A stretch of 64,000 bases of DNA from positions 54,716 through 118,715 of the forward strand of contig JAKQSI010000034.1 in NCBI GenBank assembly GCA_029570205.1, read 5' to 3'. The position numbers and the translations under genes are program-made. Numbering within the stretch: the first letter of the stretch is position 1; every line of letters starts with the position of its first letter. Source of the DNA: Candidatus Omnitrophota bacterium (lineage in GTDB: Bacteria; Hinthialibacterota; Hinthialibacteria; Hinthialibacterales; JAKPRU01). The notes beneath the pieces are model-generated. The model was not told the origin of the DNA. It ran no database searches and was given only the letters and a program-made list of their open reading frames with translations. Below, in pieces: positions 18,681 to 33,840 of this stretch.

Positions 18681-18842
18681 CAGGCAGATGGCTTGCCTGA
18701 CGAACTGCTCCAGCATTCCGATCAAGGCGACTCGCTGTGGGCTGAAGAGGCTGAACGGCGTTTGGATGAGTTGGAACAGGGACGGGCCACGGAGCTCCCT
18801 GCCGAGGAGGTCCTTCGGCGGGCCAGGGCTGCCGTCTCGTGA
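18681..18842 (+). pseudogene. N-terminally truncated antitoxin relic
   Basis: Downstream of an in-frame TAG, a frame with no ATG reads LPDELLQHSDQG, then SLWAEEAERRLDELEQG, then LPAEEVLRRARAAVS. This is the C-terminal two thirds of an addiction-module antitoxin, whose usual ending is WAEEIERRxxExxxGxxxxxPAEEV. The conserved first 25 or so residues are missing, apparently lost at the junction with waaF. The stop overlaps the start of the toxin remnant (GTGA), as in an intact module. Confidence 0.65.
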
Positions 18843-19151
18843 AACCGATTGCAGTCCGTAGTGAGGTGGACGAGAAGATCATCGAGGCTGCGCGGTTCTA
18901 TGAGAGTCGATCTGAGGGATTGGGGTTTGAGTTCTTGGAAGAGGTCGAACGATCTCTTGACCAGATCGTCGCTATGCCTGAGGCATGGCAGAAGATTGGA
19001 GATCGGGTGCGCCGCAAACCGATGTGGCGATTCCCTTTCAATGTCATCTATGCGGTTTATGCGGATGGTGGCATTGGCCCATCAGAAACGACGCCCGTTT
19101 TATTGGCGAAAACGTCTGGGGGACCCAGGGGAAGATGCGACCTCAGCATGA
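18839..19151 (+). pseudogene. Frameshifted RelE/ParE-type toxin
   Basis: The frame from the GTG at 18839 begins like a ParE toxin (VRSEVDEKIIEAARFYE, LGFEFLEEVERSLDQI, RRKPMWRFPFNVIYAVYADG) and then becomes unrelated. One frame over, the expected ending appears: MVALAHQKRRPFYWRKRLGD, stopping at 19151. The switch lies at about 19062-19080, so a small indel has split the gene. If the first frame is translated it makes a 139-residue protein with an aberrant tail lacking the last beta strand and basic helix. Together with the truncated antitoxin this is a dead module, contrasting with the intact pair at 2.6 kb. Confidence 0.75.
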
Positions 19152-19340
19152 ATCGGATGCAACCCTATTCCCTCGGCCCATCCGCTCCGTGCGGCATACA
19201 CCGTAAATCCCACCTATTCGTCCCCCGGCGTTCCCCATCCGTCCCATTCCAAACTTGATTCCCACCGGCCAAAGCCCTGCAATTTCAGGCAGGCAGGACC
19301 TAATATACCTTGTCCAATACTCCAACAGGAGGATTTTACG

Positions 19341-20798
19341 ATGAAGATCGGAATAGTCACATTTACGGATGGTCGAAAACGGGTCGCCGATGCGACCAAG
19401 GCAGATTGCCTCCATTTCCAGAAACGGATTGCGGATTGGCTGAAAGGCGAAGGGCATGAGGTGGTCGAGTTTGAGGATGTCATTTGGAACTACGATACGG
19501 CCCGGAAAGGAGCCGGTCTGATTATCGGGAGCGATTGCGACATCGCGGTGTTCAATTTCTGTGTGTGGTCATTTCCCGATTTGACCGCGCAGGCGGCGAT
19601 GCTGATCGAGTGCCCGATCCTGTTTGTCGGGAGTATCAACCCATCCCAGCCCGGCTGGGTGGCGTTTTTTGCTTCCGCCGGTGCGCTTCACGAGATCGGG
19701 CTTCCCTACGGCCGTGTGCTGGGCGATGTTGCGGATCCGAAGGTGCAGGAGAAAATCAGAAGATTCCTGAAGGAACACGAACCGGATGCGTGTGTGCGGG
19801 GCGAAGATGTTGCCCATCAGCTGTCGGGGATGCGGTACGGCCATTTTGACGGACCTGCGATGGGGATGTATACCGGGCATGTGGACGCCAGCCAGTGGAT
19901 GGCCCAGTTCGGGATTCACGTCTATCACCGGGGCCAACTGCACCTGTGGCAGATGGCGAAACAGATCGACCCCAGTCGTGTCCAGGCGGGACTTGACTGG
20001 CTCGAGAAGTATTGCGGGGAAATCCAATACAACAACACAAACCTCACGCCCGGCCTGGATGGAACATTGGCTCGGCAAGTGCGCATGTACCTGGCGATGA
20101 AAGATTTTTGTAAAGAGGAAGGGATCGATTTCTGCGGTCTGAGCGGCCAGCTCGATATGACCGAATGGCCCGACCTTTGCGTCGCAGATTTGCAGGAAGC
20201 GCTCTTGAACGACATTGCCGACTGGGAAGAGGAAAAGAAGAAGGTGATTGTTTGCGCGACGGAGTGCGACAGCAACGCCGCACTGACCATGCAGATTCTT
20301 CACCTTCTGTGTGGGAAACCGGTTCTGTTTGCCGACCTGCGTCACTACCATGCGGACCGGGACCTGTTCGACCTGGTCAATTCCGGTCAACATGCGCCCT
20401 GGCTGGCCGAACGGAGCGATGATTTCCGCGAGAATTGGAAGAAAATCCGCCTGATGCCGGCAACGGAGTTTTTCTACCGTGGGGGGGGCGCCTCCGTGCA
20501 GTTCTATGCGAAACCGGCGGAGTCGGTCACTTTTGCGCGGATTGTCCGTATCCGGGGTGAGTTTGTGATGCACATTTTCCCCGGCAGTTTCGAGGCGCTT
20601 TCCTACGAAGAAGAGGAAGCTTTGGGCAAGGAAACGGCATACACCTGGCCTCATGCGTTTGCGCGGTTCCACTGCGACTTTGAGGCGTTCTGCGAGAACT
20701 TCTCCGCGAACCACATTCATGCCGCCATCGGCAATTATGTGCCGGAGCTGATCGCCGTCTGCCACGCGCTCGATATCGAGCCGGTTGTGATTCGGTAA
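19341..20798 (+). CDS. L-fucose/L-arabinose isomerase-family protein
   Basis: 485 residues with a strong ribosome site (AGGAGG). The sequence has the three-part plan of the fucose isomerase fold: an N-terminal Rossmann-like part (CDIAVFNFCVWSFPDLTAQAA, CPILFVGSINPSQPGW), a central part (CGLSGQLDMTEWPDLCVADLQEALLND) and a C-terminal barrel (MHIFPGSFEAL, HAFARFHCDFEAFCENFSANHIHAAIGNYV). ANHIHAAIG with its His resembles the metal-site segment of fucose isomerases. The likely reaction is an aldose-ketose isomerisation of a deoxy-sugar, though many members are uncharacterised. It stands alone between a dead toxin module and a perfect 14-base hairpin. Substrate not known. Confidence 0.8.
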   Translation: MKIGIVTFTDGRKRVADATKADCLHFQKRIADWLKGEGHEVVEFEDVIWNYDTARKGAGLIIGSDCDIAVFNFCVWSFPDLTAQAAMLIECPILFVGSINPSQPGWVAFFASAGALHEIGLPYGRVLGDVADPKVQEKIRRFLKEHEPDACVRGEDVAHQLSGMRYGHFDGPAMGMYTGHVDASQWMAQFGIHVYHRGQLHLWQMAKQIDPSRVQAGLDWLEKYCGEIQYNNTNLTPGLDGTLARQVRMYLAMKDFCKEEGIDFCGLSGQLDMTEWPDLCVADLQEALLNDIADWEEEKKKVIVCATECDSNAALTMQILHLLCGKPVLFADLRHYHADRDLFDLVNSGQHAPWLAERSDDFRENWKKIRLMPATEFFYRGGGASVQFYAKPAESVTFARIVRIRGEFVMHIFPGSFEALSYEEEEALGKETAYTWPHAFARFHCDFEAFCENFSANHIHAAIGNYVPELIAVCHALDIEPVVIR

Positions 20799-20810
20799 GA
20801 GAGATTGAAT

Positions 20811-20844
20811 CGGGGGTGGGTTCGGAAGGGCGAACCCACCCCCG
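20811..20844 (+). terminator. Perfect 14-bp hairpin after the isomerase gene
   Basis: CGGGGGTGGGTTCG and CGAACCCACCCCCG are exact reverse complements separated by GAAGGG. It begins 12 bases after the isomerase stop. There is no U-tract, so it is either a transcript-stabilising or pausing hairpin, a factor-dependent terminator, or a repeat element. Confidence 0.6.
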
Positions 20845-20847
20845 AGC

Positions 20848-20961
20848 TTTGCTGGTGCTAATGGACAAGGAGAACGCACAGAAGAGGTAAAGCGAATTCT
20901 TCGAGACGCGATTTGTCTGATCATACAGGATCGGCTTGAGGATTTTCGCTCTGTGAGATGA
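20848..20961 (+). pseudogene. HicB-like antitoxin relic (C-terminal half)
   Basis: A frame without a start reads FAGANGQGERTEEV, then KRILRDAICLIIQDRLEDF, then a stop at 20959-20961. The PGxNGQGxTxEExxxxLxxAIxLILEDR pattern belongs to the central and C-terminal part of HicB-type antitoxins. The N-terminal half is missing; the remnant abuts the perfect hairpin at 20811-20844. Confidence 0.5.
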
Positions 20962-21018
20962 TTGGCAAGGTGGGGGAGGGGGGAAATACTATCCGGGGTG
21001 AAGAAAGCCGAGTGGCGA

Positions 21019-21132
21019 ATGAAAGCGGAATACACGGTAATCATCCAAGAGGCACCCGAGGGCGGGGCCAGGGTTGATGTCTCAAATGGTCTGTATAATT
21101 ATTGTCCAGGCGAGCGTGGAGAGCTCGCTTGA
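21019..21132 (+). pseudogene. HicB-like antitoxin relic (N-terminal part)
   Basis: A 37-codon frame begins MKAEYTVIIQEAPEGG, which matches the first beta hairpin of HicB antitoxins (MKxxYTVIIExxxEGG), and then degenerates to a stop. With the C-terminal relic at 20848 lying upstream of it, the two halves are in the wrong order, pointing to two separate remnants or a rearrangement. No HicA toxin is visible. Confidence 0.45.
21077..21099 (+). promoter_or_regulatory. Possible promoter of the HerA-NurA-methylase cassette
   Basis: A perfect TATAAT at 21094-21099 lies about 74 bases ahead of the first gene, with a poor -35 (GGGTTG at a 17-base spacing). It is the only good -10 element I see between the relics and the cassette. 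Confidence 0.35.
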
Positions 21133-21172
21133 ACCGAATCATGACCACGTTTTGACATAGGGGGACATATCA

Positions 21173-23284
21173 ATGCCAGATGTCATTTCACAAATTGGGA
21201 CGCAGCTTCCAAAACCGACCCTCCCACAACCGGTTCATGATGCCGGTGAGTCTCTACGAAGACTGATCGAAGCCGACGCCTATGTTGGAGAGGTTGTGTC
21301 GCTGGGTTACAGCGAAGCCATCCTTCAGATTCACGATTTCCACCGGCGACAGGTCGGCGGAATTCCCGCGTTGTGCTTTTTGCTTGCCTCACGCGTGAAT
21401 CCAGAAATGACCCCCGATCCAAGGGAGGAAGATACGTCAGTTATCTTACTTCGGGTGATGGACCATGCCGATCTTCCAAACGCCGAAGACGCGAGGCGTG
21501 TCCGTGTTGAGAATGCCCAGCGCGTCAGCGGCGAGTTGGCCGTGAATTGGGATGACCGCACTGTGATGGATGCGACCACGCATAATCTCCTAAGCTATGC
21601 AGGGGTGCGATGCCGCGTAATCGGGACATACTACATGGCTGATCTCGGGACTGACTCTAATCCGAATTGGCAACTGTGCTTTGGATCGGATATCAGCAAT
21701 TATTATCCGAACCGTGGCCTGAAAGTGTTCAAGCCTCGCGGAGAAATCTTGGCGGGTATTGTCAACTTTCGGGACCCGATTATCTTTCCGGAGATCCAAG
21801 TCCCCATGGTCCGAATTGGTCACGTCCGCTATGCGTCAACCAACAGGCGGTTTCAGAATGTAGCCAGCGTGCCCGTGTCGGTCACTCCAACGGACTTGCT
21901 GGGGCAGAAGACCGCCTTGTTCGGCATGACTCGCACAGGTAAATCCAACACCACGAAAATTGTCCTGAAGGCAATATTCGCGTTGCGCTGGGCAGCCACC
22001 GATGCCCGGAGAATCGGTCAACTTGTGTTCGATCCGAACGGTGAGTATGCAAATGAGAACACACAAGACTCGGACACCGGGACTGACAACCCGAACGCGA
22101 TCAAGAATGTTTGGAAATGTGCGCCTTCCGATCTTGCGGACCATTTTCGAGAGGATGTTGTTACCTACGGGATTACAAAGCACCCAAACGACCCGGATCG
22201 AATCCTGATGCTACTAAACTTTTACCAGGATCAAAACCTTCAGACTGGCAAGGAAATCATCAACGCTGCACTGGCAGGGCGCACGTCAATGTATATTCAA
22301 AACTTCTGTGACGTGAGTTTTCTGCTACCACCAGATGCGGATGAGGGGGAGAAGGTACGTTTTAAGCGACGCGTTTTGTTCTACCGAGCGTTGTTGCACG
22401 AATCGGGTTTTGGAAAGCCATCACAAGAGGCTCGCTTGAAAGGCTTGTTTAGCAATGAACTTCGCAAGGCGCTCATGTCTGGAAAAGGCAAAGATCCACT
22501 GAAATATAACATCTGTGCATCAATCCTTGAGAAAGAAACCGCATCTTGGGCGGAAGTTGCCCAAGCTGGCAAGATCCTCCAGGAATTCATGTACGATGGG
22601 ACATCTGGTTACCAAGATTTCGAAAGGGAATATGTGAAAAAAAGCACTTCGGGTTTTTGGGCTGACGATGCATTCAAGAAGATTCTTGGGATCTGGTCCT
22701 ATCCAAATGGGCCAAAGCTCCTTGGGGCGGTAAAAGAGCAACATACGGATCAGACTAGAACAGATTATGCGGATGACATTTGCGAACACCTGAGGCAGGG
22801 GCGACTGGTAATCGTTGACCAGTCGAGCGGTGACGCTGAGATTAACAAGGCCGCGGCTGATCGTGTGATTCAAAAAATCTTTGATCGCAACAAAGATCTG
22901 TTCCGGCAAGGTCAAGTACCTCCACATATCCTCGCCTATGTTGAGGAAGCACATAACATCTTGCCGCCATCGAAGGAAGACGACTTGAGGGACATTTGGG
23001 TGCGCACAGCTAAGGAAGGCGCGAAGTACAACATTGGACTTGTATACGCGACGCAGGAAGTTTCCTCAATACAGAAGAACATACTTCGGAATACGGCAAA
23101 TTGGTTCATTGGTCATTTGAACAACACGGATGAGACCCGTGAACTTAGGAAGTTTTACGACTTCGCCGATTTCGAGAATAGCATTCTGCGGGCACAAGAC
23201 CGCGGTTTCATTCGGATGAAGACCCTCTCCAATCCGTATGTCGTGCCAATCCAAGTAGAGCGCTTCAGCATACAAGGGGATTGA
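21173..23284 (+). CDS. HerA-type hexameric ATPase/translocase
   Basis: 703 residues with a good ribosome site (GGGGG six bases ahead). After an N-terminal region with a HAS-barrel-like beta part come Walker [13 protein letters not shown] (about 250-261), the HerA-typical VFDPNGEY, Walker [14 protein letters not shown] (about 586-598), then [10 protein letters not shown] and the arginine-containing C-terminal segment ([22 protein letters not shown]). HerA proteins form hexameric rings that pump DNA and work with the NurA nuclease in end resection; in bacteria, relatives with nuclease partners are found in antiphage systems. Here the stop lies just before the NurA-type start, so the two are co-translated. 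The region is visibly richer in A and T than its flanks, suggesting acquisition. Confidence 0.88.
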
Positions 23285-23289
23285 ACACT

Positions 23290-24639
23290 ATGCCTTACGA
23301 GGGAGAATACGCGCACTACCAACCTCTGAAGCGCATCGTCGAATCTGAACGCGTACAGCAACTGCTCCGGCGGTCTCGCGTGCTCGGTCCGACTGTGCTG
23401 ACGCAGGAGGCAATGCCCAAAACTCCACCGGCAGCCGACTCCCCACTTCCGTCTCTTGTGTTGGCAATCGATGGAAGTTATGCCGAGGTTGATGTTCGCA
23501 ATGGTTATCCTGGAGCAAAGGTCGGCTACTGTTCTGTGGCTTCTGTCGTCTTGAATCTTGCTGAATTGGAGCATTTGGATATAGACAGGCCAGTCAATCC
23601 GGTTGATTTCCGCCGGACGGAAGCTCCATCATCCGATGCCAGTGCGCTACCTGGATGTAACGTTATTACCCGCGATCATTCATCGGCCAAGGACTCGTTC
23701 CGTGAAGCGTTATTCGATCTCCTGCATGACGCGATTGTTGATGAGGAGGACAACACGCGGCTGCTTGCGACTTATCAAGCCCTTCTCGCATACAAGCCGA
23801 CAGAGAAGATTGAATGTCCATACGCGCATCTCGGCTGCGATCATCAGGTGCCCATCACTTCAGATGTGAGCACATGTCCTTGCGAGCGCCGGAAGCCGTT
23901 GTTCCCCACCGACGCGCTTCGTATTCATGAGAGATTCAACGACGATTCAGGCACAAATGGAGAGGCTTTCGGATACGTACTGAGTGTCTGGGAACGCCTG
24001 CTTCTCATTCACTTGTTACGTTGTTTTGAGCAGCGGAACTGGCTTGATCGGCTGAATGCCGTGGCCTTTTTTCTCGATGGGCCATTGGCGATATTTGGCC
24101 CGCCAGCCTGGTTGAGTGCGGCGGTCAGTCGCGAGCTTCAACGCTTGAATGCAATTGTCCAGGAAAAGACCGGCAACGATATTGTTATCGTTGGCATTGA
24201 GAAATCGGGAAATTTCGTGGCTCATTTCGAGGAAATTGACAGTCGGGAGGACGGAGGGCAGCACTTCCAGCCTGGCTCATTTTTCTTGCCAACGGATGCC
24301 TACATTAAGAAACGGATAATCTTTTCGGATAGCACGAAACGCTACGGCGCGGACACGTATTTTGGGCGGAAGTTCTTCTATAAGACGAAGAGCGGCGCTC
24401 GGATTGTGGCGAACATCCCTTTTCTGACACCTGAACAGGATTCGCTCGCGAGCGATGATCCAGCGCCGTATCCACGTCTAGGCACCGTCTGCGCGCTGCT
24501 CGACAAGTTGGTGACCTGTCGCTTTCCGAACGCGTTGGCCCCGATTGTGAGTGCACACGCACAAGCATCTATCCCTTTGCATTTGGGGCAGAAGGTCCTC
24601 CGGCAGCTGGCCCAGGTTCTTATGCGTGAAAGAGGATGA
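23290..24639 (+). CDS. NurA-type nuclease
   Basis: About 449 residues from the ATG at 23290 (AGGGGA nine bases ahead, overlapping the HerA stop codon region; a TTG at 23281 would overlap it). Landmarks of the NurA fold are visible: LVLAIDGSYAEV with the first metal Asp near residue 58, AFFLDGPLAIFG with the second Asp, and VGIEKSGNFVAHF with the conserved Lys. Between them is an unusual Cys/His cluster (CPYAHLGCDH, then CPCERR, about residues 176-200) followed by LFPTDALRIHE, which may bind zinc. NurA has 5'-3' exonuclease and endonuclease activity controlled by HerA. The cassette order HerA-NurA-methylase with overlapping ends implies one functional unit. Confidence 0.8.
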   Translation: MPYEGEYAHYQPLKRIVESERVQQLLRRSRVLGPTVLTQEAMPKTPPAADSPLPSLVLAIDGSYAEVDVRNGYPGAKVGYCSVASVVLNLAELEHLDIDRPVNPVDFRRTEAPSSDASALPGCNVITRDHSSAKDSFREALFDLLHDAIVDEEDNTRLLATYQALLAYKPTEKIECPYAHLGCDHQVPITSDVSTCPCERRKPLFPTDALRIHERFNDDSGTNGEAFGYVLSVWERLLLIHLLRCFEQRNWLDRLNAVAFFLDGPLAIFGPPAWLSAAVSRELQRLNAIVQEKTGNDIVIVGIEKSGNFVAHFEEIDSREDGGQHFQPGSFFLPTDAYIKKRIIFSDSTKRYGADTYFGRKFFYKTKSGARIVANIPFLTPEQDSLASDDPAPYPRLGTVCALLDKLVTCRFPNALAPIVSAHAQASIPLHLGQKVLRQLAQVLMRERG

Positions 24640-25742
24640 TGATGCCTGATTCTCAGATAGGTTGCTACGGAACTGCTGCAAGCCGTTGGGCTGGGGTTGG
24701 CCCCTACTATGCGATGTTTCCGGTGAGTTTCGCGAATGAGGCGGTGAAGGAATACACAAAACCCGGTGATTGGGTTTTCGATCCGTTTGCTGGACGAGGT
24801 ACATCGCTTTTTGCTGCAGCTTCGCAAGGCCGCTTCGGTTTGGGGATTGAGATCAACCCTGTGGGTTGGGTTTACGGAAAGGCAAAGATCGAAACAGCTG
24901 AGCGCAAGGATGTCGAGGAACGAATCCGTTGGCTGGGCCAAAGGTCCGTGAACTATCGCGCTGATGCAAAGAGATTGCCCGAATTCTTCCACGCGTGCTT
25001 CTGTCCTAAAGTTGAGGAATTTCTTTTGGCTGCGCGGGAGTCGCTTGACTGGCGGCGCAAGAGAGCCGATTGGACAACGATGGCGTTACTCATGATTGAC
25101 CTGCACGGAAAACGGGACAGTGCATTGTCGAATCAGATGCGTCAGACGAAAGCAATGTCGCCTCAGTATGCGGTCGATTGGTGGAAGGAACGAAGTCTTG
25201 AGCCACCGGAGCGTGATCCTGTCGATTTCATGCTTAAAAAAGTTTCGTGGCGATATGCGATGGGGTGCTTGGGCTCAGGTTCAGGACACATTTACTTGGG
25301 AGATTGTCAATCCATTCTTGATCGCTGGAGAAATCGCCCCCCGAAAACAAAGGCAAGTCTCCTTCTCACTTCTCCTCCATATTACGGAGTGACGAATTAT
25401 TTCTATGACCAATGGCTGAGGCTATGGTTGCTCGGTGGCCCGGATAAGCCTTGTAGCCCAGGAGAACCCTGCAAACGCAAGTTTGAAAACAAGAAATACT
25501 ACATTGATATGTTGCGTCATGTGTTTGAAATGTCGGGATCAGTCCTGAGAGACGATGCCGTCGTGCTCATTCGAACCGACGCTCGACAGTTCACCAGAGA
25601 GGCGACAATTGAATCTCTTGAATTTGCTTTCCCGCAGAAAAAGTTGCGTAGTGAGAAATATTCACTGCCAGATTTCACCCAGACTACCTTGTTTGATCCA
25701 GGCTCAGAACCGAAAGGCGAGATTGATTTGGTAATGTGGTGA
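24636..25742 (+). CDS. DNA methyltransferase (amino-group N4-cytosine/N6-adenine type)
   Basis: 368 residues. The SAM-binding motif I, FDPFAGRGTSLFAA, is near residue 47 and the catalytic motif IV, LLTSPPYYGVTNY, near residue 242. The TSPPY form is typical of beta-class N4/N6 enzymes, but in those it precedes motif I; here the order is reversed (alpha-like), so the protein is permuted relative to the usual type. The start is one of three consecutive ATGs overlapping the NurA stop; the third (24642) has the best spacing from GAGG. No target-recognition domain is obvious beyond the insert between the motifs. As partner of HerA-NurA it could mark self DNA so that the nuclease attacks unmodified DNA; this role is inference. 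Confidence 0.85.
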   Translation: MMMPDSQIGCYGTAASRWAGVGPYYAMFPVSFANEAVKEYTKPGDWVFDPFAGRGTSLFAAASQGRFGLGIEINPVGWVYGKAKIETAERKDVEERIRWLGQRSVNYRADAKRLPEFFHACFCPKVEEFLLAARESLDWRRKRADWTTMALLMIDLHGKRDSALSNQMRQTKAMSPQYAVDWWKERSLEPPERDPVDFMLKKVSWRYAMGCLGSGSGHIYLGDCQSILDRWRNRPPKTKASLLLTSPPYYGVTNYFYDQWLRLWLLGGPDKPCSPGEPCKRKFENKKYYIDMLRHVFEMSGSVLRDDAVVLIRTDARQFTREATIESLEFAFPQKKLRSEKYSLPDFTQTTLFDPGSEPKGEIDLVMW

Positions 25743-25790
25743 ACGCTCTCGATACCTGATTTTTTTTGTCAACGGCCGAAGAGGACCGAA

Positions 25791-26006
25791 ATGAACGAGC
25801 ACAGATTTCCACCAAGCTGGGACGAAAAGCGAGTATGCGAGGTGCTTGCCCAACACGATTCACAGACGCGCGATGAGGCCGTTGCCGAGGACCAGGTCGG
25901 ATGCCGCAAAGACGGCTGCACATTTCGCTATGTCCGGGTAAGTGGCTTTCCTCTCCACTGGATGTCCCTTCAATCAAGGCAGATGTGTCCACACAAGAGA
26001 TTGTGA
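25791..26006 (+). CDS. Small hypothetical protein, possible frameshifted antitoxin
   Basis: 71 residues, 48 bases after the methylase gene. The first half (MNEHRFPPSWDEKRVCEVL, then SQTRDEAVAED) resembles small acidic proteins that often accompany toxins, where RFPPGWDExRVxxVLxHYExQTExEAVAED is typical. The second half (rich in Cys and Arg) does not match. One frame over, the DNA at about 25940-26008 reads SPLDVPSIKADVSTQEIVK, which looks more protein-like, so a frameshift is possible. It may be a decayed antitoxin or an accessory protein of the cassette. Family recollection only; weakly supported. Confidence 0.4.
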   Translation: MNEHRFPPSWDEKRVCEVLAQHDSQTRDEAVAEDQVGCRKDGCTFRYVRVSGFPLHWMSLQSRQMCPHKRL

Positions 26007-26119
26007 AGTAAGCGTCCGGTGATATTCGGGTATCATGGAAGACGGATCGTGGGAGAAAGAAAAGGGGCGCGTGTTTTGCACCGCTCTACGTTTCGAATCT
26101 TTGTATCAGGCCAACCGGT

Positions 26120-26920
26120 CTATTTGGAATCGGTCTCGATTCTCTTCTCCAGGGCCTCGACACGTTTCCAGAGGTCAGGGAGCGAGTGAAACGAGTTGCG
26201 GCGTTGGCGGTATTCCTCGTAGCCACATCCGGGGTATCCATACACCAGTGCGCCCTCGGGAACTTCCTTGGTGATTCCCGCACAGGGAGCCAGGTGGGCG
26301 CCGGCCCCGACCACAAGATGGCCCACCATTCCCACCCCGTGACCCACAAACACATCGGACCCGATCCGGTTGCTTCCGCAAATCCCGACATGAGACTGAA
26401 TCACAGTGCGTTCCCCAATCGTGACGTTGTGGGCGACCTGCACAAGGCTTCCGATCACAGCCCCATTGTGGATGACTGTCTTGCCGAGAGTGGCACGATC
26501 CACGGTGGTGTTGGAACCGATCCGCACATCATCCCCGATCACCACATAACCGATCTGGGGAATCTTGCAGCGGTCTCCGTTGGTGTCCTTGGCATACCCG
26601 AATCCGTCGCTGCCAATGACGACACCGGCTTCCAGGACGGCCCGTTTGCCGATCTGAGTTCTTTCGCGAATGACACAATTTTGATAAATGATCGTGTTTT
26701 CCCCAATCATGCAATCTTCACCGATATAACACCCGCTGAAGATCCGGACGCCATCTTCAATGACAACGCCATCCGCGATAACAACATTTGCGTGAATTTG
26801 AACACCCCTGCCGAGGCTCACGTTTTTTGCCAGCACCGCGGCAGGGTGAATAGAAATGTCCCGATTCGAACTCTGCGATGAAACCTCTGCGACAGCCAAG
26901 TTTCCCTCTCGTCTTTTCAT
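26120..26920 (-). CDS. lpxD: LpxD-like UDP-3-O-acylglucosamine N-acyltransferase, short form
   Basis: 266 residues made almost entirely of left-handed beta-helix hexapeptide repeats (VSLGRGVQIHANVVIADG, YIGEDCMIGENTII and so on). The LpxD core is clear: GSDGFGYAKDTNGDRCKIPQIG, VVIGDDVRIGSNTTVDRATLG, LVQVAHNVTIGERTVI with the catalytic-type His in HNV, and GHLVVG. A typical LpxD has about 340 residues with an N-terminal uridine-binding domain of about 100 residues; this protein lacks it and starts directly with repeats. LpxD adds the second acyl chain in lipid A synthesis. Because of the missing domain this could be a divergent acyltransferase on another sugar nucleotide. A structured RNA with a terminator lies upstream. 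Confidence 0.75.
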   Translation of the reverse strand: MKRREGNLAVAEVSSQSSNRDISIHPAAVLAKNVSLGRGVQIHANVVIADGVVIEDGVRIFSGCYIGEDCMIGENTIIYQNCVIRERTQIGKRAVLEAGVVIGSDGFGYAKDTNGDRCKIPQIGYVVIGDDVRIGSNTTVDRATLGKTVIHNGAVIGSLVQVAHNVTIGERTVIQSHVGICGSNRIGSDVFVGHGVGMVGHLVVGAGAHLAPCAGITKEVPEGALVYGYPGCGYEEYRQRRNSFHSLPDLWKRVEALEKRIETDSK

Positions 26921-29865: not shown

Positions 29866-32348
29866 GCAAGTGACCTCAACGCCGCGATGATCGGCGTCCA
29901 ACGATCTCCATCTTTGCGAAGCTGATCGAGTCGTTCAATCCAGGAGGAGTGTGGAACCGCGCCTTGTTCCTGAAGATCGCTCAGGATTTTCCGGATTTGA
30001 GGCGGTTTCCCCTCGGAATGGACGACGATCAGGCGAACGGAGTTTTCTTCCCGGAGCCAGGAAGCGATGTGGAATTTCTGTTGTGTTTCCACGGATGGCT
30101 CCGTCAACTCGCCTCCCGCATCCTCCAAGCATATCCGTAACTCATCGGCGCGAATGATTGAACCGATTTTCGGCTCGTTCTTTTCGACCGGAACCGCGGC
30201 GATCCACTCAATACCTGCCGGGGAATGGGTGTTGAGATCTCCGCACAGTTTATCTTCCCGGCAGGGATAAATGGTGCTGATTTCGAGGTATTCGCCCCAG
30301 CTTTCCATTCCGACCGGCAAGGCCCCGGCGAAGGTGATTTTCGGGTGCGGGTGGAATCCATGTGAGAAGGCTAACGCAACACCCGCCCGCCGGAAAATGG
30401 CGTTCATGGTTTCCAGGAGATCGTGGTGGGACAGCCACGTTCCCGGGCCGTGTTTTGCGTATTTCAGCCGGTAGCGAAAGGTTCCTTCTTGCCGAGTGGG
30501 GGCCGGTTCCCGGGGAGGCGGTTGGTGAGCGGACGAGCGGATGGTGCGCACAGAGTCTCCGTCGCACACACCGCACACCCGGCAGCCATCCTGTCCGCAG
30601 TGATCGCTGGGCCGGTCCTCAAAGGTTCGCTGATATTCCTGCCAAAGATATTCCGGTCGGACCCCGATGTCAATCACGGACCAGGGGAGAAGGTCCTCGC
30701 GCCGGTAGGTCTTTTCGGCCAGGCTTTCCGGGTTCAATGCCATCTGTCGGAAAGCGTTCTGCCAGAGGTCCCAATGGAAACATTCGAACCATTCATCAAA
30801 CCGGCATCCGGCGCGGAAAGCCAGTTCAATTACACCCGCGAGACGGATATCCCCACGAGCCAGAATGGCCTCCAAAAGGCTTGGTTCGAGATTGTGAGTA
30901 GAGAGTTTAATTCCATTCTGTCGAAGGTCCGAACGCAGAATGCGGAGACGGTCCTTGCACACGGCTGCGGAAATCTGTCCGCACCATTGGTAAGGCGTAT
31001 GCGGTTTTGGGCAGAATGTCCCGATGGAGACATGGATGGTCCCCCGCCGCCAACCCTGCTCCCGGAGCATTCCACGGATTTTTCCGACAAGACGTCCGAT
31101 TCCGGCGATATCCTTCTCCGTTTCCGTGGGCAGGCCGATCATAAAGTAGAGTTTGAGGCTTTCCCAGTGCTTGCCCATGGCCTGGCGAATGGTGTCGAGA
31201 ATCGTGACGTCCGGGATGGCCTTGTTGACGGCGCGTCGGAGGCGTTCGGTTCCCGCTTCCGGCGCAAAGGTCAGTCCGCCGCCTCGCACCCGTTCCAGAT
31301 TGCGGGGGATTTCTTCGGCGAATCCATCCAGCCGCAGCGAGGGAAGGGAAATGGAAACCTGCCGATTTTCGCAATGATCCATGAGGGACGAGACGAGGTC
31401 CTGAATGCGGCTGTAATCTCCGGTCGAAAGCGAAAGAAGAGAGACCTCATCGTAGCCGGTGGAGTTTATGGCCCGCATGGCGTCCTCGATCAGTCGGGTT
31501 ACGGAACGTTCCCGGAGAGGGCGGTTGACAAAACCTGCCTGGCAGAATCGGCAACCCCGTGCGCATCCACGCATGATCTCCAGGGCAACCCGACGCTGAA
31601 CGATTCGAGCATTGGGGACCGGCTGATTAACGGGATACGGCTGACTGTCAAAGTTGATCAGGCGCTTGCGGACAGTGGAGCGCACGGCGGGGTACAGCGG
31701 GGGGCCGAAACAGAGTTCGCCGAGGCGGTTATGGATTAGGCTGTAAAGAGAGGGGACAAAGACACCCTCCAGTTTGGACAATTCCAGGAGAGTTTCGAGG
31801 CGCGAGCGGCAGCGTTCTTTTGACTCCAGGACAGAATCGGCGAGGTCCAGGACAGCCTCCTCGGCTTCTCCGATGACAAAAGCATCGACAAACGGGGACA
31901 TGGGCGCGGGATTGAACGCGCACGGCCCCCCCGCGATCACCAGGGGATGCGTCTCGTCGCGATCCCGACTGCACAGGGGAAGTGCGGCCAGGTCGAGCAG
32001 GAGGAGGGCATTTGTATAGGTCAACTCGTGCTGGAATGATATCCCGAGAATATCTGCCTGGGAGACCGGCAGGCCGGATTCCAGTGTGGTCAGCGTCTCG
32101 TTGCGCCGCCGCATCTGGGCTTCCCTGTCGGACCATGGTGCGAACGTTCGCTCACACCAGATGTCTTCCCGGCGGTTGATCACATCGTACAGGACATGCA
32201 GGCCGAGATAAGACATGCCGATTTCATACACATCCGGATAAGCGAGAACGAAGCGCAGGCGCGCGGCTGTTTTGTTGAGGACGGCATTCCACTCCCCACC
32301 GGCATACCGAACCGGTTTGAGAATCTCCAAAAGGTGTCTATTTTTCAT
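29862..32348 (-). CDS. Radical SAM protein fused to DUF2344 domain (TIGR03960/TIGR03936 type)
   Basis: 828 residues. N-terminal cobalamin-binding-like domain (LAYPDVYEIGMSYLGLHVLYDVIN), then the radical SAM core with CARGCRFCQAG (C-x3-C-x2-C) and the LSLSTGDYSRI and TFAPEAGTERLRR segments, and from about residue 630 a DUF2344 domain (FRYRLKYAKHGPGTWLSHHDL, FSHGFHPHPKITFAGALPVGMES). A Cys pair (CGQDGCRVCGVC) sits between the two. Fusions of this kind are widespread next to rng and ribosomal protein genes; the substrate is not established, with an RNA or ribosome modification often supposed. Start ATG at 32348. Coupled to rng by a four-base overlap. Confidence 0.9.
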   Translation of the reverse strand: MKNRHLLEILKPVRYAGGEWNAVLNKTAARLRFVLAYPDVYEIGMSYLGLHVLYDVINRREDIWCERTFAPWSDREAQMRRRNETLTTLESGLPVSQADILGISFQHELTYTNALLLLDLAALPLCSRDRDETHPLVIAGGPCAFNPAPMSPFVDAFVIGEAEEAVLDLADSVLESKERCRSRLETLLELSKLEGVFVPSLYSLIHNRLGELCFGPPLYPAVRSTVRKRLINFDSQPYPVNQPVPNARIVQRRVALEIMRGCARGCRFCQAGFVNRPLRERSVTRLIEDAMRAINSTGYDEVSLLSLSTGDYSRIQDLVSSLMDHCENRQVSISLPSLRLDGFAEEIPRNLERVRGGGLTFAPEAGTERLRRAVNKAIPDVTILDTIRQAMGKHWESLKLYFMIGLPTETEKDIAGIGRLVGKIRGMLREQGWRRGTIHVSIGTFCPKPHTPYQWCGQISAAVCKDRLRILRSDLRQNGIKLSTHNLEPSLLEAILARGDIRLAGVIELAFRAGCRFDEWFECFHWDLWQNAFRQMALNPESLAEKTYRREDLLPWSVIDIGVRPEYLWQEYQRTFEDRPSDHCGQDGCRVCGVCDGDSVRTIRSSAHQPPPREPAPTRQEGTFRYRLKYAKHGPGTWLSHHDLLETMNAIFRRAGVALAFSHGFHPHPKITFAGALPVGMESWGEYLEISTIYPCREDKLCGDLNTHSPAGIEWIAAVPVEKNEPKIGSIIRADELRICLEDAGGELTEPSVETQQKFHIASWLREENSVRLIVVHSEGKPPQIRKILSDLQEQGAVPHSSWIERLDQLRKDGDRWTPIIAALRSLA

Positions 32349-32628
32349 TCAATGCTCCAGGGATTCTGTTGAGATCATTACTGTATCGCCGCAATCAATG
32401 CGGATACCAGTGGTTTTGTGCGTTCCCGGCTCAACTTCCGTTGCGCCCTGCCGATGCGGATATGGGATTCAATCTATCCTCCCCCAGGCGGAAGAGACAA
32501 AAACCTGCCATTGCGTGATACCGGTCTTATCGCTCAAGCGCCTGTTTCTTGACAAGCGCCATCGGAACCGAAACAATCGGATAAAGGCCGCCGGCGGTGG
32601 TCTGTCGGATCATTCTGAGGTTACGGTC

Positions 32629-33840
32629 ATGCAGCGAGACTATAGCCCGTTTACACCGGGGATTCCTGTTCCGGTGGAGTTTTTTGTTGGGCGTCAAGCC
32701 GAGATCACCCATCTGCGTGACAAGATCATCCGGGCCTCCAAAGGCCAATTGCAGATCGCCTTTCTGTCCGGGGAACGGGGGATCGGAAAAAGTTCCCTGG
32801 CCTCGTTTGCTCGGCATCTTATGGAGCGGAAGAACCAGATTCCTGGATTGCATACTTTTCTGGGCGGTGTGACGACTCTGACGGAGATGGTCCGTCGTGT
32901 TTTCGATCGCCTCTTGAAAGACAGTCTTGATAAGACTTGGCATGAGAGGGTCAAAGATTTTTTTGGAGACCACATTCGAGAGGTCGGGCTTTTCGGGGTC
33001 AGTCTGGAATTCGGCGCGGGACCTTCGGAACTGACACGCATGGTTCATGATTTTGCCCCAGCATTGCGCAGCCTTTCAAAAAGGCTGCATGACAGGAAGA
33101 AAGGGCTTCTGATTATTCTGAACGACATCAACGGGTTGGCGGCCTCGGAGGATTTTGCGAATTGGCTGAAAAGCCTGGTGGATGAAATTGCGATATCGAG
33201 CGCGCCGCTGCCGTTATGTCTGGTGCTTGTCGGGTTGGAGGAAAGGCGGCAATCTCTCATCACACTTCAGCCTTCCCTGGCGCGGGTTTTCGGTCTGATT
33301 TCCATTGAACCGTGGTCGAATGAGGAAACGCGCGAATTCTACTTGAATTCCTTTTCTAAAGTCGGAATTACGGTTGAAGACGACGCCTTAGAGCTTCTTA
33401 TCAGGTACACGGGCGGATTGCCTGCCATGGCCCATGAAATCGGGGATGCCGTATTCAAAAAAATCTCGACTGATTGCCTGGATAGAGTCGGTACATTTAT
33501 GGGAATTTCGGATGCTGTGAGCATTGTCGGCAGAAAGTATGTGGAACCGCAGGTATTTCAATTTATTCGGAGCGAGCGATATCGATCGATTCTACGAAAA
33601 GTAGTTGAAAGTACTAATATGGAGAAGTTGATATTTCAACGACAAGAACTCCTCAGTTTACTAAGTCAAAGTGAAAAAAGAGTCTTTGGCAATTTCATCA
33701 GGAAGATGAAACAAATGGGCGTGATCACAGACGTTCCTGAAATGGGTCGGGGTTGTTACAGGTTTTGTAATCGACTCTATTTTTCCTATTTCAGATTGGA
33801 GGCAGATGCAGAGAAGAAACGTCATGTCGCGGAAAAGTGA
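32629..33840 (+). CDS. AAA-type ATPase with C-terminal winged-helix-like region
   Basis: About 403 residues from the ATG at 32629 (GAGG eight bases ahead; the frame is open further upstream but without protein character). The start FTPGIPVPVEFFVGRQAEI is typical of Orc1/STAND-like ATPases, followed by Walker A LSGERGIGKSSLA, Walker B region GLLIILNDINGLA, and a sensor-type segment LPLCLVLVGLEERR. The last 120 residues look helical with a winged-helix-like part (LLSQSEKRVFGNFIRKMKQMGVI). Such ATPases act as DNA-associated switches. The helicase-associated protein follows about 220 bases downstream and may be a functional partner. Confidence 0.8.
   Translation: MQRDYSPFTPGIPVPVEFFVGRQAEITHLRDKIIRASKGQLQIAFLSGERGIGKSSLASFARHLMERKNQIPGLHTFLGGVTTLTEMVRRVFDRLLKDSLDKTWHERVKDFFGDHIREVGLFGVSLEFGAGPSELTRMVHDFAPALRSLSKRLHDRKKGLLIILNDINGLAASEDFANWLKSLVDEIAISSAPLPLCLVLVGLEERRQSLITLQPSLARVFGLISIEPWSNEETREFYLNSFSKVGITVEDDALELLIRYTGGLPAMAHEIGDAVFKKISTDCLDRVGTFMGISDAVSIVGRKYVEPQVFQFIRSERYRSILRKVVESTNMEKLIFQRQELLSLLSQSEKRVFGNFIRKMKQMGVITDVPEMGRGCYRFCNRLYFSYFRLEADAEKKRHVAEK

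What the first reader, a model, noticed from the sequence alone, without database searches (positions are those of the whole stretch)
21173..25742. Three-gene HerA-NurA-DNA methyltransferase cassette: candidate defence system
The sequence shows a HerA ATPase (Walker [11 protein letters not shown], Walker B YVEEAH), a NurA-type nuclease (IDGS and LDGP metal motifs) and an amino-methyltransferase (FAGRGTS, TSPPY) in one direction with overlapping ends. HerA-NurA is a known resection pair, and bacterial HerA with nuclease partners is known in antiphage systems (e.g. HerA-DUF4297). A methylase as third subunit suggests self/non-self marking, a restriction-like logic using a DNA pump. It is AT-rich relative to flanks and bordered by toxin-antitoxin relics, as defence islands are. 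I cannot confirm whether this exact trio is described.
Basis: partly seen in the sequence, partly recalled or inferred. Interest (0 to 1): 0.8.

Follow-up and report, generated by a model that had tools for sequence, protein, structure and literature searches.

The report
HerA-NurA-methylase restriction-like gene cassette
Three neighbouring bacterial genes, a DNA pump, a DNA-chewing nuclease and a DNA-methylating enzyme, travel together as a unit across bacteria and archaea and most likely form a so far unnamed immune system that destroys DNA lacking the cell's own chemical mark.

Summary
HerA-like ATPase (21173-23284), NurA-like nuclease (real start probably ATG 23290, to 24639) and PF01555 DNA methyltransferase (24636-25742) sit end to end on the + strand, in a 5.3-kb AT-richer insert whose empty site survives in a congeneric genome. 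A HerA-guided scan of about 85,000 species genomes found 350 relatives. Of the best 80 loci, 74 carry NurA and the same methylase; the other six are cut off by contig ends. Catalytic residues are essentially invariant, and the proteins co-vary (r 0.82-0.88). Using the methylase as bait in 395 Bacteroidota genomes gave NurA next door in 8 of 8. A sister HerA-NurA clade, often on prophages, instead carries an unrelated D12 or beta-type methylase directly upstream. Best solved-structure matches are TdpA and TdpB of the phosphorothioate-based Tdp antiphage system. Best reading: a restriction-modification-like defence in which a HerA-NurA translocating nuclease degrades DNA lacking the cassette's methyl mark; Tdp-like, with base methylation instead of phosphorothioation. 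Function is inferred, not shown. PADLOC and NCBIfam have no model for the trio and I found no name for it in open-access papers. The nearest described operon, Thermus ICETh1 (NurA-TdtA-methylase), serves DNA donation.

The parts
20804..26142 (.). Accessory insert between a fucose-isomerase-like gene and a hexapeptide-repeat acyltransferase-like gene; a congeneric genome has about 90 bp here
   Evidence: congener G001:C72 aligns to window 20625-20803 and 26143-26500 with only about 90 bp between; GC 0.515 against 0.56 in the flanks
20818..20843 (+). Inverted-repeat (terminator-like) sequence after the fucose isomerase; homology to congener G002 ends here and other DNA follows in G002
21173..23284 (+). 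HerA-like hexameric DNA translocase ATPase (703 aa)
   Evidence: PF01935 2.2e-10; best solved relative TdpA 7e-22 by profile, 1.9e-19 by single sequence
21923..21952 (+). HerA Walker [11 protein letters not shown] (residues 251-260)
   Evidence: G251, G256, K257, S258 and N259 invariant in 77 relatives
22937..22957 (+). HerA Walker B YVEEAHN (residues 589-595)
   Evidence: E591, E592, A593 and H594 invariant in 77 relatives
23290..24639 (+). NurA-like nuclease, probable true start ATG 23290 (ORF can be opened at TTG 23281)
   Evidence: PF09376 2e-10; AlphaFold model pLDDT 83 matches TdpB of TdpAB best, Z 18.8 over 307 residues; start
23470..23472 (+). NurA motif I aspartate (D64 in 23281 numbering, IDGS)
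   Evidence: D in 75 of 75
24076..24078 (+). NurA second acidic motif (D266, LDGPLA)
   Evidence: D in 71, E in 4 of 75
24636..25742 (+). SAM-dependent DNA amino-methyltransferase, alpha-type motif order (I before IV), predicted N4-cytosine or N6-adenine methylase (368 aa)
   Evidence: PF01555 6e-14; model pLDDT 87.5, Foldseek top hit E. coli Dam
24780..24803 (+). Methylase motif I DPFAGRGT (SAM binding)
   Evidence: D49, F51 and G53 invariant in 73 relatives
25368..25382 (+). Methylase catalytic motif IV TSPPY
   Evidence: all five residues invariant in 73 relatives

Best explanation
A restriction-modification-like defence cassette built on a DNA pump. The methylase marks host DNA at its target (inferred). 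A HerA hexamer with a NurA dimer threads dsDNA, probably from an end, and NurA degrades it (inferred from solved HerA-NurA and TdpAB complexes). DNA carrying the methyl mark is spared, either because the mark stalls or inhibits the translocase, as I recall for phosphorothioate in TdpAB, or because the methylase blocks loading (inferred). The three genes form one co-transferred, co-evolving unit (shown by comparative genomics).
For: Fixed trio in 74 of 80 related loci, the remaining 6 truncated by contig ends. Most gaps run from -11 to +15 bp, with pairwise-identity correlations of 0.82-0.88. Methylase bait: NurA adjacent in 8 of 8 genomes. HerA bait in the same 395 genomes: all 7 HerAs above 560 bits lie in genomes with the methylase. 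Sister HerA-NurA clade carries a non-homologous methylase directly upstream: D12 in 3 of 6 Bacteroidota genomes and 6 of 6 new viral contigs, beta-type PF01555 in two more genomes, and type I HsdM nearby in the sixth. Repeated replacement of the modification enzyme suggests the modification is needed. Solved-structure kin: HerA to TdpA 7e-22 against 1e-10 for HerAs; NurA model to TdpB Z 18.8 against 12.9 or less for NurAs. Carried by a Vibrio temperate phage beside the integrase, other prophages, haloarchaeal, Deferribacter and cyanobacterial plasmids. Rare and patchy (1 of 98 relatives, about 2% of Bacteroidota), single copy in 29 of 29 genomes, empty site in a congener, tree mixing 25 phyla. 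Decay looks R-M-like: two loci lost nuclease or pump but kept the methylase, none the reverse.
Against: No experiment. HerA-NurA normally acts on DNA ends, and how base methylation would protect from an end-loading exonuclease is not obvious; it needs translocase sensing or a site-dependent loading step. The methylase lacks an obviously hypervariable recognition region, unlike most R-M enzymes. Cyanobacterial plasmid relatives have HerA-NurA with no adjacent methylase. The Thermus ICETh1 operon with a similar gene set works in DNA donation and its methylase was nearly dispensable (PMC5365140, PMC7767461). Enrichment of defence genes in the flanks is suggestive only, because the scan tool counts families and not genes.
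Confidence: 0.7

Rival explanations
1. A DNA-donation (transjugation-like) module such as the Thermus ICETh1 operon: HerA-like pump exports DNA, NurA trims, the methylase is accessory.
For: ICETh1 carries NurA-TdtA(HerA-like)-PF01555 methylase in one operon; pump and nuclease are needed for donation.
Against: No integrase, relaxase or type IIG enzyme is a conserved part of the cassette: neighbours are not shared, with the best recurrent one in 6 loci. Present in phages, archaea and many lineages not known to be competent. In ICETh1 the methylase was nearly dispensable, whereas here it is never missing from an intact locus of this clade.
Confidence: 0.07
2. A selfish R-M-like addiction module: same biochemistry, but maintained by killing cells that lose the methylase and not chiefly by phage exclusion.
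For: Frequent transfer between phyla and carriage on plasmids and phages; decay retains the methylase. True of many R-M systems.
Against: Not exclusive with defence. HerA-NurA needs ends, so killing of cells with an intact circular chromosome is not assured.
Confidence: 0.12
3. A DNA end-resection and repair module in which methylation only tunes activity, as for archaeal HerA-NurA.
For: HerA-NurA resection pairs are known in archaea and Deinococcus; fold and motifs match.
Against: Patchy, single-copy, horizontally moved, inserted at an empty site; closer to TdpA/TdpB than to repair HerA-NurA; fixed to a methylase that repair pairs are not known to carry.
Confidence: 0.05
4. A modification-activated system: the methylase marks or binds invading DNA (for example at replication ends), and HerA-NurA is recruited to methylated DNA or to the methylase itself.
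For: The methylase is tightly linked and conserved throughout, without a hypervariable recognition domain, which would fit a constant partner-recognition role.
Against: Replacement by unrelated methylases of other families is easier to explain by the mark than by a protein-protein role; a self-methylating enzyme would also mark the host.
Confidence: 0.06

Closest known systems
Tdp system (TdpA-TdpB-TdpC, Thermus; An et al. 2025 Nat Chem Biol 21:1160, PDB 8wet/8wfd/8y1k)
   Same: HerA-like hexamer plus NurA-like dimer as restriction machine and a third gene for DNA modification; both proteins are the best solved-structure matches here. Modification logic recalled from the paper, which is not held; title cited via PMC13251355.
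   Different: Modification enzyme is a base methyltransferase, not a phosphorothioation enzyme. No TdpC/PAPS-reductase-like gene nearby; the only one in the genome is a weak hit on another contig. HerA is about 120 aa longer (703 against 586) and NurA about 90 aa longer (449 against 358).
Thermus thermophilus ICETh1 DNA-secretion operon (TthHB27I-NurA-TdtA-methylase)
   Same: NurA-like nuclease, HerA-like ATPase and PF01555 methylase in one operon on a mobile element (PMC5365140, PMC7767461).
   Different: Gene order differs, a type IIG enzyme and an integrase are present, its role is DNA donation, and the methylase is nearly dispensable. Sequences were not compared because I had no HB27 sequence.
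Archaeal and Deinococcus HerA-NurA end-resection complex
   Same: Pump-nuclease pair with the same folds and catalytic motifs.
   Different: No methylase partner; closer structural kin is TdpB (Z 18.8 against 12.9 or less).
HerA-DUF4297 and Sir2-HerA antiphage systems
   Same: HerA-family hexamer coupled to an antiphage effector (PADLOC HerA models match weakly; PMC11291478).
   Different: Effector is DUF4297 or Sir2, not NurA; no methylase; NCBIfam antiphage-HerA scores are far below cut-off (44 against 800 bits).
HerA/FtsK capture systems, DndFGH and BREX-related capture
   Same: HerA/FtsK pump delivers invader DNA to a nuclease (PMC10853773, PMC12839542).
   Different: Different nucleases and partners; NurA is not mentioned in those texts.
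Type II restriction-modification
   Same: Nuclease plus cognate methylase as one transferable unit.
   Different: Nuclease is a NurA paired with an ATP-driven pump, not a site-specific endonuclease.

Membership tests
Tdp (TdpABC) | TdpA-like HerA/FtsK hexamer | tested here: met
   Best PDB match of profile and of single sequence is TdpA, 7e-22 and 1.9e-19, ten orders ahead of other HerAs
Tdp (TdpABC) | TdpB-like NurA-fold nuclease | tested here: met
   AlphaFold model against TdpB 8wfd_G Z 18.8, 307 aligned; next NurA Z 12.9
Tdp (TdpABC) | TdpC phosphorothioation gene in the operon | tested here: not met
   Third gene is a PF01555 methylase; the only PAPS_reduct hit in the genome is weak and on contig C20
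Tdp (TdpABC) | Restriction blocked by the cognate DNA modification | not testable with these tools
   Needs biochemistry
ICETh1-type DNA secretion operon | HerA-like ATPase, NurA and PF01555 methylase in one operon | tested here: met
   order differs (NurA-TdtA-methylase in Thermus)
ICETh1-type DNA secretion operon | Type IIG enzyme and integrase/att element around the operon | tested here: not met
   None in the 5.3-kb insert; integrases in only 2 of 145 neighbour proteins of one batch
ICETh1-type DNA secretion operon | Sequence homology to TTC1878-1880 | not tested
   No HB27 sequence was at hand
HerA-DUF4297 / Sir2-HerA antiphage | DUF4297 or Sir2 effector next to HerA | tested here: not met
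   Neighbour is NurA
HerA-DUF4297 / Sir2-HerA antiphage | NCBIfam HerA_antiphage equivalog score | tested here: not met
   44 bits against cut-off 800; second model 26 against 850
PADLOC-listed defence system | All components match models of one system | tested here: not met
   HerA hits generic, NurA no hit, methylase hits generic type II
Type II R-M | Site-specific endonuclease cognate to the methylase | tested here: not met
   The nuclease gene is NurA; no REase gene seen in the insert
HerA-NurA end-resection pair | HerA and NurA folds and motifs | tested here: met
HerA-NurA end-resection pair | Linkage to rad50-mre11 (archaeal repair operons) | tested here: not met
   The insert holds only the trio and a small ORF fragment
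HerA-NurA end-resection pair | Function in DNA repair | not testable with these tools
   Needs a deletion strain; patchy mobile distribution argues against a housekeeping role

The most novel reading that the evidence does not exclude
HerA-NurA pumps are the core of a general class of translocating-nuclease restriction systems whose self-mark is interchangeable: an alpha-order TSPPY methylase downstream (this cassette, about 25 phyla), a D12 Dam-like or beta-type methylase upstream (sister clade, often on prophages), or phosphorothioation (Tdp). The pump reads the mark while threading DNA. This methylase-coupled class appears to be unnamed.
Probability: 0.5. Interest if true: 0.85.

Novelty: new variant of a known kind. 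Interest (0 to 1): 0.72.

Why it matters
If true, it adds an unnamed R-M-like defence present in hundreds of species genomes and in archaea. It would explain why HerA-NurA recurs outside repair, and make testable how a DNA pump tells self from non-self by a base mark as opposed to a backbone mark. The parallel pairing of the same pump-nuclease with unrelated methylases gives a natural swap experiment. It also supplies a search signature (HerA-NurA next to any DNA modification gene) that PADLOC lacks.

Tried and rejected
Not a known PADLOC/NCBIfam system. A conserved fourth gene was sought by clustering 383 flanking proteins: none; the most recurrent (6 loci) is a PIN-like gene just upstream. 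Defence-island enrichment: flanks (290 proteins) against a control (142 proteins from mostly the same genomes) gave 122 + 165 against 66 PADLOC families, and R-M genes only in the flanks' top rows, but the tool reports families and not genes, so I use it only as a hint. Phosphorothioation partner sought genome-wide: absent near the cassette. Sister clade in 398 Pseudomonadota genomes: only the seeded genome hit. Sequence search of NurA against the PDB found nothing, so fold comparison was needed. Direct comparison with TdtA was not made (no HB27 sequence at hand). Paper searches for the trio and for TdpABC gave no open-access description of either; Iyer et al. 2004 is not held, so an early mention there cannot be excluded. 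A congener's NurA (G001, 30% identity) is a different, partial match and not this cassette. Phylum counts may be inflated by mis-binned MAG contigs (warns of this; near-identical copies in L054/L056/L057).
Full report
OBSERVATION. The three genes are present as described: HerA-like 21173-23284, NurA-like 23281(TTG)/23290(ATG)-24639, methylase 24636-25742, all on the + strand. Pfam supports each above its gathering score. The 23290 ATG is the likelier NurA start, because that column is Met or Val in every relative. The cassette is AT-richer than its surroundings: 0.515 GC against 0.56, in the lowest 1% of equal windows.

A MOBILE INSERT. In the congeneric genome G001 the flanking genes, a fucose-isomerase-like gene and a hexapeptide-repeat gene, are separated by only about 90 bp, whereas in the window 5.3 kb intervene. 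A second congener (G002) keeps the left flank to base 20842 and then carries other DNA. No other genome among 98 relatives carries this NurA; the one other match, in G001, is a different protein.

THE TRIO IS A UNIT. A genome-contig scan with a HerA alignment found 350 relatives; the best 80 were kept, at 47-80% identity. All three genes occur in 74 of them: 73 by profile, and L036, whose methylase start is split by Ns at the contig end. The other six contigs end inside or just after HerA or NurA. HerA-NurA gaps are -107 to +15 bp in 70 of 74 tandem cases counted (window and one plasmid locus included), and NurA-methylase gaps -148 to +17 in 73 of 74. Pairwise identities of the three proteins correlate at 0.82-0.88. 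Core Walker A and B residues, NurA D64/H315 and methylase motif IV TSPPY are invariant, NurA D266 nearly so. Each of 29 genomes examined has a single copy. The HerA tree mixes 25 phyla with 36 label changes, which implies frequent transfer, although mis-binned MAG contigs may add some.

INDEPENDENT BAIT TESTS. With the methylase profile as bait in 395 Bacteroidota genomes, 8 genomes scored above 320 bits and all 8 have NurA (or a remnant of it) next to it; weaker methylases (under 180 bits) do not. With HerA as bait in the same set, all seven HerAs above 560 bits are in methylase-positive genomes. Two loci show decay: in L145 NurA is cut and fused to the methylase, and in L143 HerA is missing and NurA is truncated; both keep the methylase. 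Loss of the methylase with an intact pump and nuclease was never seen in this clade. Numbers are small, but this is the order expected if the methylase protects the cell.

THE SISTER CLADE SWAPS THE METHYLASE. Six Bacteroidota genomes carry HerAs of 235-520 bits with NurA. Three have a D12-class adenine methylase directly upstream (L138, L140, L142), two a beta-order PF01555 methylase (L139, L141), and one lies beside type I HsdM (L137). A viral-contig scan with this clade added six new contigs, all with a D12 methylase directly upstream of HerA; NurA follows in five and the sixth contig stretch ends inside HerA (L160, L161, L163-L166). Several lie among integrase-, repressor- or phage-structure-like genes, judged by eye. 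A Vibrio temperate phage carries integrase-HerA(split)-NurA plus a D12 methylase on the opposite strand, with genes its depositors labelled Shedu-like and Gabija-like elsewhere. A haloarchaeal plasmid has the window's exact order. A Deferribacter megaplasmid has methylase-HerA-NurA with HerA broken by IS200/IS605. Cyanobacterial plasmids have HerA-NurA without an adjacent methylase. Pairing of one pump-nuclease with unrelated methylases argues that the DNA mark is what matters.

STRUCTURAL KIN. The HerA profile's best solved relative is TdpA (7e-22) against about 1e-10 for archaeal and antiphage HerAs (single sequence 1.9e-19). NurA has no sequence match in the PDB, but its model (pLDDT 83) matches TdpB of the TdpAB complex at Z 18.8 over 307 residues, against 12.9 for Sulfolobus NurA and about 8 to 12 for others. 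The methylase model (pLDDT 87.5) is a Rossmann-type methylase with a helical insert between motifs I and IV; Foldseek ranks E. coli Dam first, while the second aligner ranks tRNA/rRNA methylases first, so the fold says methylase but not the exact kind. TSPPY suggests N4-cytosine, but this is an inference from motif lore. TdpABC is, from my own knowledge of An et al. 2025 (not held; reference seen), a phosphorothioate-based antiphage system whose pump-nuclease spares marked DNA. No phosphorothioation gene is near the cassette.

MECHANISM. Shown: the trio's presence, conservation, co-transfer, active-site conservation and structural kinship. Inferred: the methylase marks the host; HerA loads on dsDNA (probably at ends such as injected linear phage DNA, breaks or replication ends), pumps it to NurA and degrades it; the mark prevents or stops this. 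The weak point is how base methylation protects against an end-loading nuclease. Sensing by the pump, as recalled for TdpA, is the likeliest answer, and a conserved recognition region would mean a common motif across hosts.

KNOWN OR NEW. PADLOC and NCBIfam contain no matching system. Papers on HerA-FtsK capture systems and BREX-related capture do not mention NurA. The Thermus ICETh1 operon (PMC5365140, PMC7767461) is the one described operon I found with these three gene types, and is a DNA-donation machine with a nearly dispensable methylase. I therefore rate the cassette a new variant of a known kind: modification-coupled HerA-NurA restriction, Tdp-like in working, not a Tdp member because the phosphorothioation gene was tested and absent.

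Noticed in passing
L160, L161, L163, L164, L165, L166 (IMG/VR contigs); L138, L140, L142: A second cassette type, D12 adenine methylase directly upstream of HerA, then NurA, mostly on phage/prophage contigs; apparently also unnamed.
   Followed up: partly
L139:3962-11431, L141:3997-11466: Beta-type methylase-HerA-NurA followed by a large AAA (SMC-like) ATPase and an HNH-like protein; a longer variant shared by two genomes.
   Followed up: partly
L145:7139-8539 and L143:7057-9104: Natural wrecks: NurA deleted and fused in frame to the methylase (L145); HerA lost and NurA truncated (L143); methylase intact in both.
   Followed up: partly
Upstream of HerA in L025, L080, L081, L082, L085, L086: Recurrent PIN-like-domain gene (about 340-440 aa) starting the operon, a possible optional toxin or effector.
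   Followed up: partly
G002:C877 (L155:1-607): The same fucose-isomerase-linked site holds different DNA in a second congener, so it may be an integration hotspot.
   Followed up: no
L008:11184-14982: HerA of the Deferribacter megaplasmid is interrupted by an IS200/IS605 element with TnpB; flanks are full of repeat proteins, one annotated as ankyrin.
   Followed up: no
window 18693-19258: ParE/RelE-type toxin-antitoxin relic upstream of the fucose isomerase gene, outside the insert; identified by eye, no Pfam match.
   Followed up: partly
window 25791-26006: 71-codon ORF fragment after the methylase, resembling the start of small antitoxin-like proteins; likely a remnant.
   Followed up: no
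window 32272-33840: STAND-like AAA_16 ATPase about 6.5 kb downstream with weak hits to defence ATPases (PDC-S72, SngB; E about 0.01).
   Followed up: no
L126, L127, L135: HerA hits in the Bacteroidota search reported with one in-frame TAA (G178, G232, G183); it may mark the ORF end or a broken gene, not resolved.
   Followed up: no
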